50,587 bases of DNA from Candidatus Kapaibacterium sp. (GTDB lineage: Bacteria; Bacteroidota; Ignavibacteria; Kapaibacteriales; UBA2268), in assembly GCA_937995785.1 (NCBI GenBank), contig CALKJQ010000013.1, forward strand, positions 1-50,587, given 5' to 3'. The notes under the pieces were generated by a model that was not told where the DNA came from, searched no databases, and saw nothing but the letters and a program-made list of their open reading frames with translations. This document shows positions 6,887 to 13,658 of the stretch, one piece after another (position 1 is the stretch's first letter; the number at the start of each line of letters is the position of its first letter). The position numbers were made by a program, and so were the translations under genes.

Positions 6887-6919
6887 AAAAGACTACAATT
6901 TATAATTGTAGTCTTTTTT
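6887..6919 (+). terminator. Rho-independent-type terminator after gcvH
   Basis: AAAAGACTACAATT-TAT-AATTGTAGTCTTTTTTA perfect stem ending in a T run. Confidence 0.85.
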
Positions 6920-7067: not shown

Positions 7068-8075
7068 ATGAAGAAAATACTATTTATTGGGGGATCTCTT
7101 AATCAATCAACCATTGTCCATCAAGTTGGCAAGCATCTCGAAAATGACTTTGATTGTTATTACTCTCCTTATTATGCAGATGGACTTATCGGGTATTGCG
7201 AAAAAAAGAATTTATTAAATTTTACAGTTTTAGGTTCAAATAGCAATTTTTTCCGACAAACATTAAATTACTTCGAAAATAATAACTTGAAAATTGACTA
7301 CAAAGGTCAACGCAATTATTATGATTTAGTAGTTACATCTTCAGATTTAATTATTCCAAAAAACATAAAAGACAAAAAAATAATATTAATTCAAGAAGGA
7401 ATGACAGATCCCGAAAATTTTGCTTTTTATTTAGCAAAATATCTTAAATTCCCGCGATGGATAGCAAGCACCTCGACTACCGGATTATCTGATGCATATA
7501 ATTATTTTTGTGTAGCCTCCGAAGGCTATCGGGATTTGTTTATCCGCAAAGGCGTGAAACCGGAAAAAATAGTTGTTACAGGGATTCCAAACTTTGATAA
7601 TATCGAACAATATAGAACAAATGAATTCCCTCATAAAAATTTTGTGTTAGCTGCAACTTCGGATTCCCGCGAAACCTTCAAGTTCGAAAATAGGTACGAG
7701 TTTATCAGAAAAGTCAAAACTATTGCTAATGGGAGACAAATCATATTCAAATTACACCCTAATGAAATTTTTGATAGAGCAATTCGCGAAATTAAAGAAA
7801 TTATTCCCGATGCTTTGGTTTATACAGATGGAGATATTAAACCAATGATTGCAAATTGCGATGTCCTTGTAACTGCTTTTTCATCAGTTGTTTATTATGG
7901 TATTGCATTAGGTAAGGAAGTATACTCTAATTTCGATTTACACACATTAATAAGGATGACGCCAATCCAAAATGGTGGAACCTCGGCATTGAAAATTGCC
8001 AATATTGCAAGGAGTTTAATTACTCAGCCAGCTGCAAAAGAGAACTTGTTATTTGCTCTGAATACTCAATACTAA
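7068..8075 (+). CDS. GT-B fold glycosyltransferase/glycerophosphotransferase-like protein
   Basis: 'EKIVVTGIPNFDN', 'IIFKLHPNE', 'NCDVLVTAFSSVVYYGIALGKEVYS'. Start refined from 7014 to MKKILFIGG. Confidence 0.6.
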   Translation: MKKILFIGGSLNQSTIVHQVGKHLENDFDCYYSPYYADGLIGYCEKKNLLNFTVLGSNSNFFRQTLNYFENNNLKIDYKGQRNYYDLVVTSSDLIIPKNIKDKKIILIQEGMTDPENFAFYLAKYLKFPRWIASTSTTGLSDAYNYFCVASEGYRDLFIRKGVKPEKIVVTGIPNFDNIEQYRTNEFPHKNFVLAATSDSRETFKFENRYEFIRKVKTIANGRQIIFKLHPNEIFDRAIREIKEIIPDALVYTDGDIKPMIANCDVLVTAFSSVVYYGIALGKEVYSNFDLHTLIRMTPIQNGGTSALKIANIARSLITQPAAKENLLFALNTQY

Positions 8076-8079
8076 TAGA

Positions 8080-8883
8080 ATGAAAATCTTAATAATAATA
8101 CAATCGAGAATTGCTTCCACTCGCCTCTTTGGTAAAGTAATGTTGCAAATACTAAACAGACCTGTCTTGGCGTTAATGCACGAAAGAGTAAAAAGGTCAA
8201 GGTTTCACACCGATATTGTCATAGCAACATCAACCAATCCATTAGACCAAAATATTATCCAATTCGCCGAAAGAGAAAAAATTAATGTATTTGCTGGCGA
8301 CGAAATAGATTTGCTCGACCGACATTATCAAGCCGCAAAATTGTATAAAGCCGATGCAGTTGTTAAAATTCCATCTGATTGTCCTTTGATCGACCCTTTG
8401 GTTATTGATAATGTATTATCTTTTTACCTTAAAAATCATAACAAATTTGATTATGTTAGCAATTTGCATCCTGCCACCTATCCCGACGGCAATGACGTTG
8501 AGATTTGTTCGTTTCGTGCCCTCGAACAAGCCTGGAGAGATGCTGATCGCGATTATCAACGCGAACACACAACTCCATATATTTGGGAAAATACTGATAT
8601 TTTCAGAGTTGCAAACTTAGAATGGGAAACAGGATTTGAGTATTTCGATAAATATCGATTAACCTTAGACTATCCCGAAGATTTTGAATTAATCAAGAGA
8701 ATATACGAAAACCTCTATCCGAAAAATCCAAATTTTGGATTGAACGAAATTATTAAATTTTTAGATGAAAATCCCGAAGTTTATAATTTGAATAAAAAAT
8801 ATTTGGGTAAGTATTGGTACGATAACCATTTAGACGAAATTAAAAACATTGATAATTACAAAAAAAAGAAGTATGGAATATAA
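8080..8883 (+). CDS. SpsF-like cytidylyltransferase family protein (CMP-sugar synthase-like)
   Basis: 'ILIIIQSRIASTRLFGKVMLQI', 'KIPSDCPLIDP', 'REHTTPYIWEN', 'RLTLDYPEDFELI'. Confidence 0.85.
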   Translation: MKILIIIQSRIASTRLFGKVMLQILNRPVLALMHERVKRSRFHTDIVIATSTNPLDQNIIQFAEREKINVFAGDEIDLLDRHYQAAKLYKADAVVKIPSDCPLIDPLVIDNVLSFYLKNHNKFDYVSNLHPATYPDGNDVEICSFRALEQAWRDADRDYQREHTTPYIWENTDIFRVANLEWETGFEYFDKYRLTLDYPEDFELIKRIYENLYPKNPNFGLNEIIKFLDENPEVYNLNKKYLGKYWYDNHLDEIKNIDNYKKKKYGI

Positions 8884-9697
8884 CGAAAAACTATTAAAAC
8901 AATTAGCCTTTAATGGTAGAAAAAGCATTCTCGATATGACATTAAATGGGGGATGTTTTATTGGTGCATCGCTTTCTTGTGTGGATGTGCTAACTTACTT
9001 ATACAATTCATTTTTGAATATAAAACCTTCGAACCTTAGAGATCCAAATCGAGACTATTTTTTAATTTCCAAGGGGCACGCAGTGCCAGCCTTATATGCT
9101 GTGTTAGCGGAATGCAATATATTGGAAAAAAGAAGATTAGTAAATCATTTAAAGGAGAATGACCACATCTATTGGCACCCCAATACTAATATCCCCGGTA
9201 TTGAGTTCCATTCGGGATCTTTGGGGCACAATTTAAGTGTAGCAATTGGAATTGCTATCGACATAAAACTAAAAAATGACAAAAACAAAGTTGTTGTTTT
9301 GCTTGGTGATGGCGAACTAAATGAAGGTTCTAACTGGGAGGGACTATTATTAGCCCCATCCTACGAATTGAATAATTTGATTATTTTGATCGACAGAAAT
9401 CATTTACAAGCTAATTTAGAAACCGAAAATCTAATTAAGTTAGAACCTCTAAAAAATAAATTTGAGCAGTTTGGATTTAATGTATACGACATCACTGGGC
9501 ACGATTTCAATCAAATCCATCAATGTTTTAATTCATTAAAAGATAATTCCAAACCTCATATTTTAATTTTAGATACTATTCGTGGCAAAGGTATACCTTC
9601 GATTGAACGCAATCCCTCCAAATGGTATATGAAAATTGACCAAGATGAATATTCAGCACTTATTGATGAACTATCACGAAATTTGGAGGAGAATTAA
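8873..9697 (+). CDS. transketolase N-terminal (TPP-binding) subunit
   Basis: 'SKGHAVPALYAVLAE', 'GSLGHNLSVAIGIA', 'VVLLGDGELNEGSNWEGLLLAPSYELNNLIILIDRN'. ATG 8873 overlaps the spsF-like stop. Confidence 0.88.
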   Translation: MEYNEKLLKQLAFNGRKSILDMTLNGGCFIGASLSCVDVLTYLYNSFLNIKPSNLRDPNRDYFLISKGHAVPALYAVLAECNILEKRRLVNHLKENDHIYWHPNTNIPGIEFHSGSLGHNLSVAIGIAIDIKLKNDKNKVVVLLGDGELNEGSNWEGLLLAPSYELNNLIILIDRNHLQANLETENLIKLEPLKNKFEQFGFNVYDITGHDFNQIHQCFNSLKDNSKPHILILDTIRGKGIPSIERNPSKWYMKIDQDEYSALIDELSRNLEEN

Positions 9698-9698
9698 T

Positions 9699-10604
9699 AT
9701 GAATTACGAGCAATTTTTATTGGAATATATCCCAAATAATCCCGAATTTATTGTATTAACAGCCGAAAATCGAGCAGCAATAAGAAATTTGCCTAATGTA
9801 TTAACCAAAAATTTTGTCGATACTGGAATTACAGAACAATCGCTTGTTGGTATTTCGGCGGGATTGGCATTGCGTGGCCGGAAGCCTATAGCCCACGCTT
9901 TAGCGGCATTTTTGACTATGCGAGCATTTGAGTTTATTCGAACTGATTTAGGTTACGGAAACTTGCCCGTCAAGATTGTAGGTTCGTTTGCGGGATTTTT
10001 GTCCGAAGCCAACGGACCAACTCACCAAGCCATCGAGGATATCGGACTAATGAGAATGATACCTAATATGCAAGTGTTTGCTCCTGCAGACGAAGAGGAT
10101 ATGATTAAAATGTTACCAAAAATATTGAAGACTAATTCTCCTGCTTACATTCGATATAACAATTTGCCGAGTACAATCAATCACACCGATTTTGAAATTG
10201 GCATTGCCGAAATCATCGGAAATGGTAATGATGTATCTATTCTCACCTATGGAACATTGTTCAGTGAAACCTTGAAAGTTAAGGAATATTTAGAAAACCA
10301 AGATATAAATTGTACCATTGTCAATTTCAGAACACTTAAACCAATCGACAAAGATATTATTTTGGAATTGGCAAGGCAATCCAAATTATTGGTAACAATT
10401 GAAGATCATTTTATTAACTCAGGTTTGTATTCAATTGTATGTAATTATTTGTTCGAACACAAATTTGTTGTTGATGTTTTGCCAATCGGATTGAACGAAA
10501 GGTGGTTCAAACCCTTGATGCTCCAAGATATTCTCGAATACGAAAAATTCGATTACGTTAGTATTTCAAATCAAATTATCAATAAACTAAGTGAAATAAA
10601 ATGA
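9699..10604 (+). CDS. transketolase C-terminal (pyrimidine-binding) subunit
   Basis: 'FVDTGITEQSLVGISAGLALRGRKPIAHALAAFLTMRAFEFIRTDLGY', 'GPTHQAIEDIGLMRMIPNMQVFAPAD'. RBS GGAGGA before ATG 9699. Confidence 0.9.
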   Translation: MNYEQFLLEYIPNNPEFIVLTAENRAAIRNLPNVLTKNFVDTGITEQSLVGISAGLALRGRKPIAHALAAFLTMRAFEFIRTDLGYGNLPVKIVGSFAGFLSEANGPTHQAIEDIGLMRMIPNMQVFAPADEEDMIKMLPKILKTNSPAYIRYNNLPSTINHTDFEIGIAEIIGNGNDVSILTYGTLFSETLKVKEYLENQDINCTIVNFRTLKPIDKDIILELARQSKLLVTIEDHFINSGLYSIVCNYLFEHKFVVDVLPIGLNERWFKPLMLQDILEYEKFDYVSISNQIINKLSEIK

Positions 10605-11932
10605 TAGATGTTAATAATACAACAAACCAATTTCCTGTCATCAATAAATCCAATGAGTTATATGATAGAATTAAAAGGATCATACCATCAGGCACCCATA
10701 CTCTTGCAAAAGGGGTTTCGCAATATGTTGATGGAATTGCCCCAAAATTCTTGGAAAGAGGCAGTGGATCGATTGTTTGGGATGTAGATGGCAATGAATT
10801 CATCGATTTCACAATGGCAGTTGGACCTTTGTCGTTAGGCTATTCCTACTATAGAGTGGACGAGGCTATCAAAGAACAACTTGCCAAAGGTATATCTTTT
10901 TCTCTTCTTAACCCACTCGAATTGGAAGCCGCAGAGTTAATCCAAGAAGTTGTGCCTAATGCCGAGATGGTGCGTTTTGCCCGTGGAGGAGCCGACGTAA
11001 CAAGTATGGCTGTCCGTTTAGCACGAGCTTATACGGGGAAATCAAAAATATTATGCTGTGGATACCATGGTTGGCACGATTGGTATGTTTCGGTTACACC
11101 GCGAAACAACGGAATTCCCAATCAAGTTCAAGAATTAACCAACACATTTGAATACAATAATATTCAATCATTGATTGATTCAATTGATGAGAATGTGGCT
11201 GCTGTTATACTCGAACCTGTAACTTTTTTTGAACCAAAAGATAACTTTCTACAAAATATTGCCGAAGTATGCAAACAAAACGGAATCGTTTTGGTTTTCG
11301 ATGAAATGTGGACGGGTTTTCGAATGGCTTTAGGTGGAGCCCAAGAATACTTTGGGATAAAACCTGATTTGGCAACTTATTCCAAAGCAATAGCCAATGG
11401 AATGCCTTTGGCAGTAATAACCGGAAAATCTGAGATAATGAAACTTATAGAAAACGACGTGTTTATTTATAGCACATTTGGCGGCGAAGCACTTTCGCTG
11501 GCTGCTGCCAAAGCTACTATTAATGAATTGAAGGATAAAAAAGTTCCACAATATTTAAATGAAATCGGATATGTCCTAAAGAATGGTATTAATACTATTT
11601 TGGAAGAAGTGGGAATAGATTATATCAAAGCAATAGGCTATAATTTCAGGCTTATGCTTGATATAAATCATCCAACAATCGATAGTTTAATAGTTAAATC
11701 TTTCATACAGCAAGAATTAATTCGAAAAGGTATTTTGTGGAGTACGTATTATAATATGTCCTACTCACATACAACCGAACTTATTAATTATACCATCGAG
11801 AGCCATCGCCTTGTTTTCGAAAAATTAAAAAATGTAGTTGATAAAGGCAATATCGAAAACGAAATCAGAGGAATACCTATTCAACCTTTGTTCAGAAAAG
11901 TAAGCAATTTCAACACAAAACCGAGGCAATAA
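10601..11932 (+). CDS. class III PLP aminotransferase, glutamate-1-semialdehyde 2,1-aminomutase-like
   Basis: 'RFARGGADVTSMAVRLARAYTGKSKILCCGYHGWHDWY', 'LVFDEMWTGFR', 'ATYSKAIANGMPLAVITG'. ATGA overlap with the previous gene. Confidence 0.88.
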   Translation: MIDVNNTTNQFPVINKSNELYDRIKRIIPSGTHTLAKGVSQYVDGIAPKFLERGSGSIVWDVDGNEFIDFTMAVGPLSLGYSYYRVDEAIKEQLAKGISFSLLNPLELEAAELIQEVVPNAEMVRFARGGADVTSMAVRLARAYTGKSKILCCGYHGWHDWYVSVTPRNNGIPNQVQELTNTFEYNNIQSLIDSIDENVAAVILEPVTFFEPKDNFLQNIAEVCKQNGIVLVFDEMWTGFRMALGGAQEYFGIKPDLATYSKAIANGMPLAVITGKSEIMKLIENDVFIYSTFGGEALSLAAAKATINELKDKKVPQYLNEIGYVLKNGINTILEEVGIDYIKAIGYNFRLMLDINHPTIDSLIVKSFIQQELIRKGILWSTYYNMSYSHTTELINYTIESHRLVFEKLKNVVDKGNIENEIRGIPIQPLFRKVSNFNTKPRQ

Positions 11933-12735
11933 TGGATATATTTGATTTGACGGGCAAAGTTGCAGTTGTAACAGGTGCCTTAGGTTTAATTGGTCAAGAA
12001 CATTGCCGAGCATTAATAGCCTTTGGTGCAAAAGTAATAGCAACTGATATCGACGAAGTTGCAATTAAGCAATTTGCCAAAACAATGGGTGAAAATGCCT
12101 ATGGTTATCATATGGACATTACTAACAAGGAAAGTATAAAATCGGTATGCGACAGAGTTTTCGAAGAATTAGGTTCAATCGATATATTAGTAAATAATGC
12201 GGCAATCAATGATATGGTGGAAGACCCAAAATCGAGTTTGGAACTTTCGAAATTTGAGAATTATCCTTTGGAATTATGGGAAAAGTCCATAAAAGTAAAC
12301 TTGACGGGAACATTCTTGTGTTGTCAGGTTTTTGGTCAAAGAATGGTTAAACAAGGATTTGGCTCCATCATTAATATTGCATCAACCTATGGAATTGTTT
12401 CTCCAAACCAGTCTCTATATGTTGATGAGAACGGAAATCAAACATTTTTTAAACCACCGGCTTATCCCGTATCAAAAGCTGGGGTAATTATGCTAACCAA
12501 ATATCTTGCATCATACTGGGGAGAAAAAGGAATAAGAGTAAACTGCATTTCGCCTGGCGGAGTAGAAAATGGGCAAAATCCATTTTTCATTAAGCAATAT
12601 TCAGACAAAACTCCATCAAAACGAATGGCTCAAAAAAATGATTATCAAGGTGCTTTAATATATCTTGCATCGGATGCCTCGAGCTACACAAATGGAGCAA
12701 ACATTATAGTTGATGGTGGTTGGACAATATGGTAA
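11932..12735 (+). CDS. short-chain dehydrogenase/reductase, PtmA-like
   Basis: 'GKVAVVTGALGLIGQEHCRAL', 'LVNNAA', 'YPVSKAGVIMLTKYLASYWGEKGIRVNCISPGG', 'NGANIIVDGGWTIW'. Confidence 0.88.
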   Translation: MDIFDLTGKVAVVTGALGLIGQEHCRALIAFGAKVIATDIDEVAIKQFAKTMGENAYGYHMDITNKESIKSVCDRVFEELGSIDILVNNAAINDMVEDPKSSLELSKFENYPLELWEKSIKVNLTGTFLCCQVFGQRMVKQGFGSIINIASTYGIVSPNQSLYVDENGNQTFFKPPAYPVSKAGVIMLTKYLASYWGEKGIRVNCISPGGVENGQNPFFIKQYSDKTPSKRMAQKNDYQGALIYLASDASSYTNGANIIVDGGWTIW

Positions 12736-12785
12736 ACAAATTTAAAATATAATTATAAAATAATATTACAATAAGGAGAAATAAA

Positions 12786-13658
12786 ATGGCTGAAGTTAAA
12801 ATAGGGGATAAACACATCGGTGATGGACATCCCGTATATATAATTGCCGAAATTGGAATCAATCATAACGGTTCGATAGAAATTGCAAAAAAATTAATTG
12901 ATGCAGCTATTTTGGCTGGTTGCGATGCCGTTAAATTCCAAAAACGGACCCCCGAATTGGCAGTTCCAAAAGACCAATGGAACAAAATGAGGGAAACACC
13001 TTGGGGTTACATATCATATATAGAATATCGCCATAAAGTGGAATTTGGGCATAATGAATACCAAGAAATAGATGATTATTGCAAACAAAAAGGTATTACT
13101 TGGTTTGCTTCGGTTTGGGATTTGGAATCTGTTAAATTTTTGGAAGACTACAACCCCATTATGTATAAAGTTCCATCAGCAGCATTAACAGACAAAGAAC
13201 TACTAGGATTATTGAAAGAAACCAATAGACCAATTATGCTTTCCAGTGGAATGTCGCAGCTCGAACAAATTGACGAAGCGATAGATTTTATGAAAGATGC
13301 TCCATTAATGCTTGCTCAAGCCACTTCTACATATCCATGTGCTTTGTCTGAATTGAACCTGTCAGTAATAACCACTTTTAAAAAAAGATATGAAAATATA
13401 CCAATAGGATATTCGGGACATGAAGTAGGATTAGCACCAACCTATGCAGCAGTGGCATTGGGTGCAACATTTGTGGAGCGACATTTCACTTTGGATAGGT
13501 CGATGTGGGGCACCGACCAATCCGCTTCGGTCGAGGTTGGAGGAATGTTCCGATTAGTAAAAGATATTCGTGATATCGAAAAATCACTCGGTGATGGCAT
13601 AAAAAGGGTATATGATAGTGAAATACCCTCGATGCAGAAACTTAGAAAAGTGATGTAA
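12786..13658 (+). CDS. NeuB-family (N-acetylneuraminate synthase-like) protein lacking the C-terminal SAF domain
   Basis: 'PVYIIAEIGINHNGSIEIAKKLIDAAILAGCDAVKFQKR', 'MYKVPSAALTDKELL', 'IGYSGHEVGLAPTYAAVALGATFVERHFTLD'. Ends at 290 aa. Confidence 0.9.
   Translation: MAEVKIGDKHIGDGHPVYIIAEIGINHNGSIEIAKKLIDAAILAGCDAVKFQKRTPELAVPKDQWNKMRETPWGYISYIEYRHKVEFGHNEYQEIDDYCKQKGITWFASVWDLESVKFLEDYNPIMYKVPSAALTDKELLGLLKETNRPIMLSSGMSQLEQIDEAIDFMKDAPLMLAQATSTYPCALSELNLSVITTFKKRYENIPIGYSGHEVGLAPTYAAVALGATFVERHFTLDRSMWGTDQSASVEVGGMFRLVKDIRDIEKSLGDGIKRVYDSEIPSMQKLRKVM

What the first reader, a model, noticed from the sequence alone, without database searches (positions are those of the whole stretch)
7068..13658. 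Seven-gene cassette that may make an unusual CMP-activated ulosonic acid
Tightly packed co-directional genes with 1-11 nt overlaps: GT-B-like, SpsF-like cytidylyltransferase, transketolase N and C subunits, GSA-aminomutase-like PLP enzyme, PtmA-like SDR, NeuB-like synthase. NeuB enzymes condense an aldose with PEP, SpsF/NeuA-like enzymes activate with CMP, and PtmA/PtmB-like genes occur in flagellin-glycan pathways. A transketolase plus a GSA-type aminomutase replaces the usual UDP-GlcNAc route genes (no NeuC/LegG hydrolysing epimerase, LegB dehydratase or LegC aminotransferase is visible here). Inference: the C-skeleton is built by two-carbon transfer, aminated or isomerised, then extended with PEP, giving an amino-ulosonic acid not obviously matching sialic, legionaminic or pseudaminic routes.
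Basis: partly seen in the sequence, partly recalled or inferred. Interest (0 to 1): 0.75.

Follow-up and report, generated by a model that had tools for sequence, protein, structure and literature searches.

The report
Conserved operon for a CMP-activated ulosonic sugar
A tight seven-gene operon, found in nearly the same gene order in bacteria of at least four phyla, very probably makes and transfers an uncharacterised sialic-acid-like cell-surface sugar acid, and no described pathway that I could find uses this set of enzymes.

Summary
In detail: seven co-directional genes at 7068-13658 encode a GT-B enzyme, SpsF-like cytidylyltransferase, split transketolase (N, C), class-III PLP aminotransferase, SDR and a NeuB-family synthase. 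It is not local. The operon recurs as GTB-SpsF-TktN-TktC-GSAM-SDR-HAD-NeuB-FAH in Ignavibacteria, Bacteroidota (Hymenobacter and others), Chloroflexota, Myxococcota and a Methylomagnum plasmid; 41 of 44 loci holding five marker genes keep one order. The NeuB lacks the SAF domain and NeuB's Glu134. The simplest model is a phosphorylated, KDN-like route: NeuB joins PEP to a hexose-6-phosphate-like sugar, HAD removes phosphate, SpsF adds CMP, GTB transfers. SDR plus aminotransferase probably add an amino group. The transketolase has lost three usual substrate-binding residues and is missing from seven otherwise similar operons, so 'skeleton built by two-carbon transfer first' is unproven; 'aminomutase' is unlikely. 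FAH and nearby OlsF or OlsB/OlsA genes hint at a lipid acceptor. Product unknown, no activity tested. Verdict: new variant of a known kind, interest about 0.6.

The parts
7068..8075 (+). GTB: GT-B fold transferase, probably CMP-ulosonate dependent
   Evidence: Pfam Glyphos_transf 27.7 bits; AlphaFold model pLDDT 92.5, GT-B matches incl. UDP-GlcNAc 2-epimerases, TagF and a CMP-bound capsule polymerase; invariant Q109-E110-G111, H230-P231-N232-E233, S272 over 32 sequences
8080..8883 (+). SpsF-like cytidylyltransferase
   Evidence: CTP_transf_3 99.2 bits; below KdsB cut-offs
8873..9697 (+). TktN: N-terminal half of a split transketolase-like ThDP enzyme
   Evidence: Transketolase_N 92.9 bits; best solved relative 6yak, split transketolase of Carboxydothermus; no His at two conserved transketolase His positions in 33 of 33 sequences
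9699..10604 (+). TktC: C-terminal half of the split transketolase-like enzyme
   Evidence: Transket_pyr 95.6 and Transketolase_C 73.1 bits; best solved relative 6yaj; catalytic Glu46 conserved, acceptor-recognition Asp replaced by Asn105
10601..11932 (+). GSAM-like class-III PLP aminotransferase
   Evidence: Aminotran_3 174.8 bits; nearest model PRK06209 378.8 bits, below cut-off 486; HemL 259 against 527; PLP Lys262 invariant
11932..12735 (+). SDR oxidoreductase
   Evidence: adh_short_C2 172.4 bits; conserved NNAA and YxxxK-type motifs
12786..13658 (+). NeuB-family PEP-condensing synthase without SAF domain
   Evidence: NeuB 246.5 bits, no SAF hit; active-site columns conserved but the Glu134 equivalent lost
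6887..6917 (+). Terminator-like hairpin behind the upstream gcvH gene; suggests the cassette is a separate unit
   Evidence: 14-pair stem followed by a T run; the number of such sites in the region is not above shuffles, so weak

Best explanation
The cassette is one operon for making and transferring a CMP-activated 2-ulosonic acid by a phosphorylated, KDN-like route, with an amino group probably added. Proposed steps (all inferred from families, motifs and gene linkage; no activity shown): (1) the SAF-less NeuB condenses PEP with a phosphorylated aldose, most simply a mannose-6-phosphate-like hexose, to an ulosonate phosphate; (2) a KdsC/KDN9P-phosphatase-type HAD removes the phosphate (in the operon in many relatives; in the window's genome the only family member lies on contig C127); (3) the SDR oxidises a hydroxyl and the class-III enzyme transaminates it; (4) the divergent split transketolase adjusts or supplies the carbon skeleton, order unknown; (5) SpsF forms the CMP-sugar; (6) GTB transfers it to an envelope acceptor, possibly a lipid.
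For: Same operon in at least four phyla, 41 of 44 marker-complete loci in one order; protein distances of the other six genes correlate with NeuB distances (r 0.54-0.78, Mantel p 0.0005, n=32; partly shared ancestry). HAD between SDR and NeuB in many relatives, best named model KDN-9-P phosphatase NF058599 (163.6 bits, cut-off 180). NeuB-linked HADs carry Glu and Lys at positions 56 and 67 of BT1713 in all cases but one (Arg67); these two residues are the ones altered in PDB 4hgq/4hgr. Internal control: in two Chlorobi genomes the KdsA-linked paralogue has Arg56 and the NeuB-linked one Glu56/Lys67. In Anaerolineae and Poribacteria loci cytidylyltransferase and HAD are fused in one protein beside NeuB. 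NeuB lacks SAF and the Glu134 equivalent, arguing against a ManNAc-type substrate. KDN-9-P synthases using Man-6-P are known (PMC6200933). GTB has HP and E-G motifs typical of CMP/CDP-dependent GT-B enzymes (meaning of the motifs from own knowledge).
Against: No enzyme activity shown. The Glu56/Lys67 signature also occurs in the single HAD of two cassette-free relatives, so it is not proof in the window's own lineage, and the window operon has no HAD. In several genomes with an operon HAD it is the only KdsC-family gene over the cut-off, so it may serve Kdo as well. GTB's closest folds by TM-score are UDP-GlcNAc 2-epimerases, so its role is not settled. NCBIfam scores are all below equivalog cut-offs.
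Confidence: 0.6

Rival explanations
1. One reading: SDR, aminotransferase and transketolase first build a short amino-aldose phosphate (as in the aminoshikimate route, where a split transketolase releases an amino-tetrose), which NeuB then extends with PEP, giving an amino-ulosonate, perhaps shorter than nine carbons.
For: All genes in one operon; retained ThDP motif, catalytic Glu and some substrate His in the split transketolase; a fused transketolase replaces the split pair at the same place in four relatives, so this activity is wanted there.
Against: Seven otherwise similar operons have no transketolase between SpsF and GSAM; Chlorobi keep NeuB (61-64% identical) plus HAD without linked GSAM or Tkt, and the six tested have no close GSAM (best about 39%); the Asp that in the yeast enzyme recognises the acceptor aldose (own knowledge) is Asn here.
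Confidence: 0.2
2. Two modules: NeuB (with HAD) makes plain KDN or similar, while Tkt, GSAM and SpsF make a separate CDP- or CMP-activated amino compound that GTB (Glyphos_transf-like) transfers.
For: Glyphos_transf hit for GTB; HAD-NeuB alone in Chlorobi.
Against: A GTB homologue (54%) lies at a Poribacterial locus whose only cytidylyltransferase in view is fused to the HAD beside NeuB; the genes travel together.
Confidence: 0.15
3. An ordinary sialic, legionaminic, pseudaminic or Kdo pathway, or the PLP enzyme is the cell's haem GSAM.
For: Generic family names; the cassette GSAM is the best HemL match in all six genomes tested.
Against: No NeuC, LegB, LegC or PseB-type gene in the cassette; separate KdsA and WaaA genes over the cut-offs exist in 18 of 19 genomes tested; no HemA over cut-off in 8 of 8 genomes.
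Confidence: 0.05

Closest known systems
Bacteroides thetaiotaomicron / Prymnesium KDN route (KDN-9-P synthase, KDN-9-P phosphatase, CMP-KDN synthetase)
   Same: NeuB-family synthase, HAD of the KDN9P-phosphatase type (in relatives), CTP_transf_3 activator
   Different: Extra SDR, class-III aminotransferase and split transketolase; HAD not in the window's operon; NeuB without SAF domain; activity untested
Campylobacter legionaminic acid route (ptm/leg genes)
   Same: SDR distantly like PtmA, NeuB-type synthase, CMP activation
   Different: No LegB, LegC, LegG, LegH, PtmE or PtmF in the cassette; SDR far below the PtmA cut-off
Aminoshikimate (AHBA) front end with split transketolase, oxidoreductase, PLP enzyme and PEP-condensing synthase
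   Same: Same enzyme classes; a works-like analogy only (own knowledge)
   Different: NeuB family instead of aminoDAHP synthase, CMP activation, glycosyltransferase; no cyclisation gene
Shewanella Kdo8N (KdnA/KdnB) amination of an ulosonic acid
   Same: Oxidation plus PLP amination of a 2-ulosonate (own knowledge)
   Different: Different oxidoreductase and aminotransferase families; no transketolase

Membership tests
KDN-9-phosphate route | NeuB-family synthase acting on Man-6-P | not testable with these tools
   Family membership met, substrate not testable; SAF domain and the Glu134 equivalent absent
KDN-9-phosphate route | KDN-9-P phosphatase with Glu56/Lys67 | tested here: inconclusive
   Linked HADs carry the pair almost without exception and in Chlorobi differ from the KdsA-linked paralogue; the window's genome has only an unlinked HAD with the pair, and two cassette-free relatives have the pair too
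KDN-9-phosphate route | CMP-ulosonate synthetase | tested here: inconclusive
   CTP_transf_3 domain clear, no equivalog cut-off reached
Sialic / legionaminic / pseudaminic routes | UDP- or GDP-GlcNAc derived precursor genes (NeuC, LegB/C/G, PseB/C/G/H) in the cassette | tested here: not met
   None among the cassette genes; not searched for elsewhere in the genome
Kdo route | KdsA-type synthase | tested here: not met
   Cassette synthase is NeuB family; canonical KdsA lies elsewhere in the genome
GSA 2,1-aminomutase (HemL) | HemL equivalog score and HemA partner | tested here: not met
   259 bits against 527; no HemA over cut-off in 8 of 8 genomes; R-to-K at the carboxylate site and shortened loop
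Transketolase | ThDP motif, catalytic Glu, conserved substrate-binding His and Asp | tested here: inconclusive
   GDGELN motif and Glu46 kept; two His positions and the Asp replaced throughout the split family
UDP-GlcNAc 2-epimerase (for GTB) | Epimerase_2 score and N-terminal GTRPE-type motif | tested here: not met
   21.6 bits against 30.6; N-terminus FIGGSLNQ, not GTRPE; the fold is shared

The most novel reading that the evidence does not exclude
The operon makes an undescribed amino-nonulosonic (or shorter amino-ulosonic) acid and puts it on a membrane aminolipid, giving a new class of acidic glyco-aminolipid in Ignavibacteria, Hymenobacter, Chloroflexota and Myxococcota, with a ThDP enzyme of new substrate specificity.
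Probability: 0.22. Interest if true: 0.85.

Novelty: new variant of a known kind. Interest (0 to 1): 0.6.

Why it matters
Bacterial ulosonic acids are predicted from a few gene sets (Neu, Leg, Pse, KDN, Kdo). This operon is widespread in environmental phyla, is annotated piecemeal as sialic acid synthase, transketolase and haem aminomutase, and would be misread by those predictors. Showing its product would add a surface sugar, explain many 'sialic acid' calls in environmental genomes, and give enzymes for making new CMP-sugars.

Tried and rejected
Haem GSAM role: rejected, no HemA over the cut-off. Kdo replacement: rejected, KdsA and WaaA are present over the cut-offs in 18 of 19 genomes tested; the Anaerolineae one lacks both. 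GTB as NeuC: score below cut-off and motif absent, but the fold search does not separate transferase from epimerase. Viral contig scan with NeuB gave nothing. Glu56/Lys67 as proof for the window's own HAD: weakened because two cassette-free relatives have the pair too and one has Asp56. OlsF as a co-occurring partner: it is common in the window's family with or without the cassette, so only its adjacency counts. Two hmmscan calls failed on wrong coordinates and were repeated without them. Literature searches found no described pathway with this gene set. BT1714 (KDN-9-P synthase) could not be fetched for a direct comparison.
Full report
OBSERVATION. The seven ORFs exist as described. Overlaps are 11, 4 and 1 nt and gaps 4, 1 and 50 nt. 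G+C of the cassette is 35.1% against 33.5% for the rest of the window. Upstream is gcvH with a terminator-like hairpin, downstream rho, so this is a free-standing unit, not part of a visible O-antigen cluster. The cassette NeuB is the only NeuB-family match in the genome.

ORGANISM. The window lies in a 2.25-Mb, 94%-complete genome. A same-family relative, G034, has a 15,807-base contig with the cassette at the same coordinates as DIEP01000053.1, titled 'Ignavibacteria bacterium UBA5771', so the host is very probably of that group (inference).

CONSERVATION. Among 60 relatives, 13 carry a NeuB 61-65% identical to the window's; nearly all other NeuB-family matches in these genomes are below 40%, a clean gap. 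None of the four same-genus relatives has it, so presence is patchy. In 94 loci examined, 44 hold GTB, SpsF, GSAM, SDR and NeuB; 41 of these show the order GTB-SpsF-(TktN-TktC or a fused Tkt)-GSAM-SDR-(HAD)-NeuB-(FAH), genes in brackets being optional. The exceptions are L066 (probably a gene-calling artefact of one over-long ORF), SDR after NeuB in L110, and HAD after NeuB on the Methylomagnum plasmid. One locus (L044 = L098) is counted twice. Protein distance matrices of the other six genes correlate with that of NeuB (r 0.54-0.78), which fits inheritance as a unit, though common ancestry of the genomes contributes. The copy on plasmid NZ_AP019784 shows that the set can sit on a plasmid.

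Many relatives have a HAD phosphatase just before NeuB. Its best named model is KDN-9-P phosphatase (163.6 bits, cut-off 180), ahead of KdsC. Aligned to Bacteroides BT1713, NeuB-linked HADs carry Glu56 and Lys67, with one Arg67. PDB 4hgq and 4hgr are BT1713 with Glu56, and with Glu56 plus Lys67, changed to Ala, which shows that these residues were targeted; that they set substrate specificity is my own knowledge of that work. In two Chlorobi genomes the HAD next to KdsA has Arg56, while the HAD next to NeuB has Glu56/Lys67. In Anaerolineae and Poribacteria loci a cytidylyltransferase-HAD fusion sits beside NeuB. This supports a phosphorylated ulosonate intermediate for this NeuB family as a whole. 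For the window it is weaker: its operon has no HAD, its genome has a single unlinked family member (L127, 42%) with Glu and Lys at those sites, and two cassette-free relatives also have the pair. That single HAD may serve both Kdo and this route.

NEUB. At 290 aa it has no SAF domain hit; most relatives' ORFs are 289-303 aa. In Neisseria NeuB the motif is SGEC; here it is SAA or SAS, so the Glu134 equivalent is lost, while E22, K50, Q52, Y183, S210, H212, H233 and D244 are invariant in the alignment (residue numbering of NeuB and roles from own knowledge). This argues for the family's condensation chemistry on a non-ManNAc substrate.

TRANSKETOLASE. The halves are closest to the solved split transketolase of Carboxydothermus. 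ThDP motif, catalytic Glu and some substrate residues persist, but no His stands at two conserved His positions in all 33 TktN sequences, and the Asp of the DG(P/A)(T/S)HQ motif is Asn in TktC. Four relatives have a distantly related fused transketolase at the same place. Seven operons (L047, L051, L052, L055, L056, L081, L109) have none between SpsF and GSAM. So its substrate is probably unusual, and it is not strictly needed in the operon. Whether those seven genomes hold it elsewhere was not tested.

PLP ENZYME. Nearest model PRK06209; HemL 259 bits against a cut-off of 527. The mobile loop of GSAM is shortened and its carboxylate-binding Arg is Lys (role of the residue from own knowledge). 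The genomes tested have no HemA over the cut-off. Aminotransferase is therefore the better guess. In a cyanophage the slot between CTP_transf_3 and NeuB is taken by a DegT aminotransferase, with an SDR in front, which fits an SDR-plus-aminotransferase amination step.

GTB. The AlphaFold model is confident. Foldseek gives GT-B enzymes of several kinds, with TM-scores slightly higher for UDP-GlcNAc 2-epimerases than for TagF or the CMP-bound capsule polymerase. Sequence motifs (QEG, HPNE, no GTRPE) favour a CMP/CDP-dependent transferase. This is inference.

ACCEPTOR. An FAH-type membrane hydroxylase follows NeuB in many loci. Among the 60 relatives, FAH at 50% identity or more occurs in 9 of 13 cassette genomes and 0 of 47 others (Fisher p 5e-8, ignoring phylogeny), including two genomes where it is unlinked. 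Its nearest named model is OlsE, an ornithine-lipid hydroxylase, but far below cut-off. OlsF-like genes lie near the cassette NeuB, or near a lone duplicate NeuB (L059), in six loci; the two tested pass the OlsF cut-off. OlsB/OlsA-like genes plus LplT follow the cassette on the Methylomagnum plasmid. A lipid acceptor is therefore a reasonable, unproven suggestion. The window's genome has OlsF elsewhere but no FAH hit.

VERDICT. A real, widely conserved operon for which I found no description; the pathway class (PEP-condensed, CMP-activated ulosonic acid) is well supported, the phosphorylated route moderately, amination moderately, the exact product and acceptor unknown. The literature held here gave no pathway with this gene set, but most subscription journals are not in that library. 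Known relatives: KDN synthesis from Man-6-P (PMC6200933) and the Leg route (PMC4481668).

Noticed in passing
L033:11253-16071 (LR756508.1, 484-kb uncultured phage): A SAF-less NeuB (47% identical to the window's) stands among four genes matching GT29, the sialyltransferase family best known from animals; no cytidylyltransferase or HAD relative was found in a 50-kb stretch around it.
   Followed up: partly
L032:9361-12816 (MH319754.1, Kyanoviridae): Marine cyanophage-like genome with SDR, CTP_transf_3, DegT aminotransferase and SAF-less NeuB (50%) in a row: a phage version of the ulosonate core.
   Followed up: partly
L142, L143 and L058, L059: Two Ignavibacteria-type genomes hold the full operon with HAD and FAH plus a second lone short NeuB elsewhere.
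   Followed up: partly
L062, L065, L067, L071, L072, L074, L079, L085, L087, L090, L094: Chlorobi keep only HAD and NeuB together in a conserved housekeeping context (near inorganic pyrophosphatase-like and HtpG-like genes in most), without the rest of the cassette.
   Followed up: partly
L068, L075, L083, L089, L095, L099, L100, L102, L104, L106, L107, L110, L116, L118, L126: A small SMR-type membrane protein of about 120 aa follows FAH on the same strand in many Bacteroidota operons; a flippase role is possible.
   Followed up: partly
G000, G008, G034, G035, G036, G043: These genomes have no HemL over the cut-off, and no HemA over the cut-off either, so they probably lack the usual C5 route to haem precursors.
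   Followed up: no
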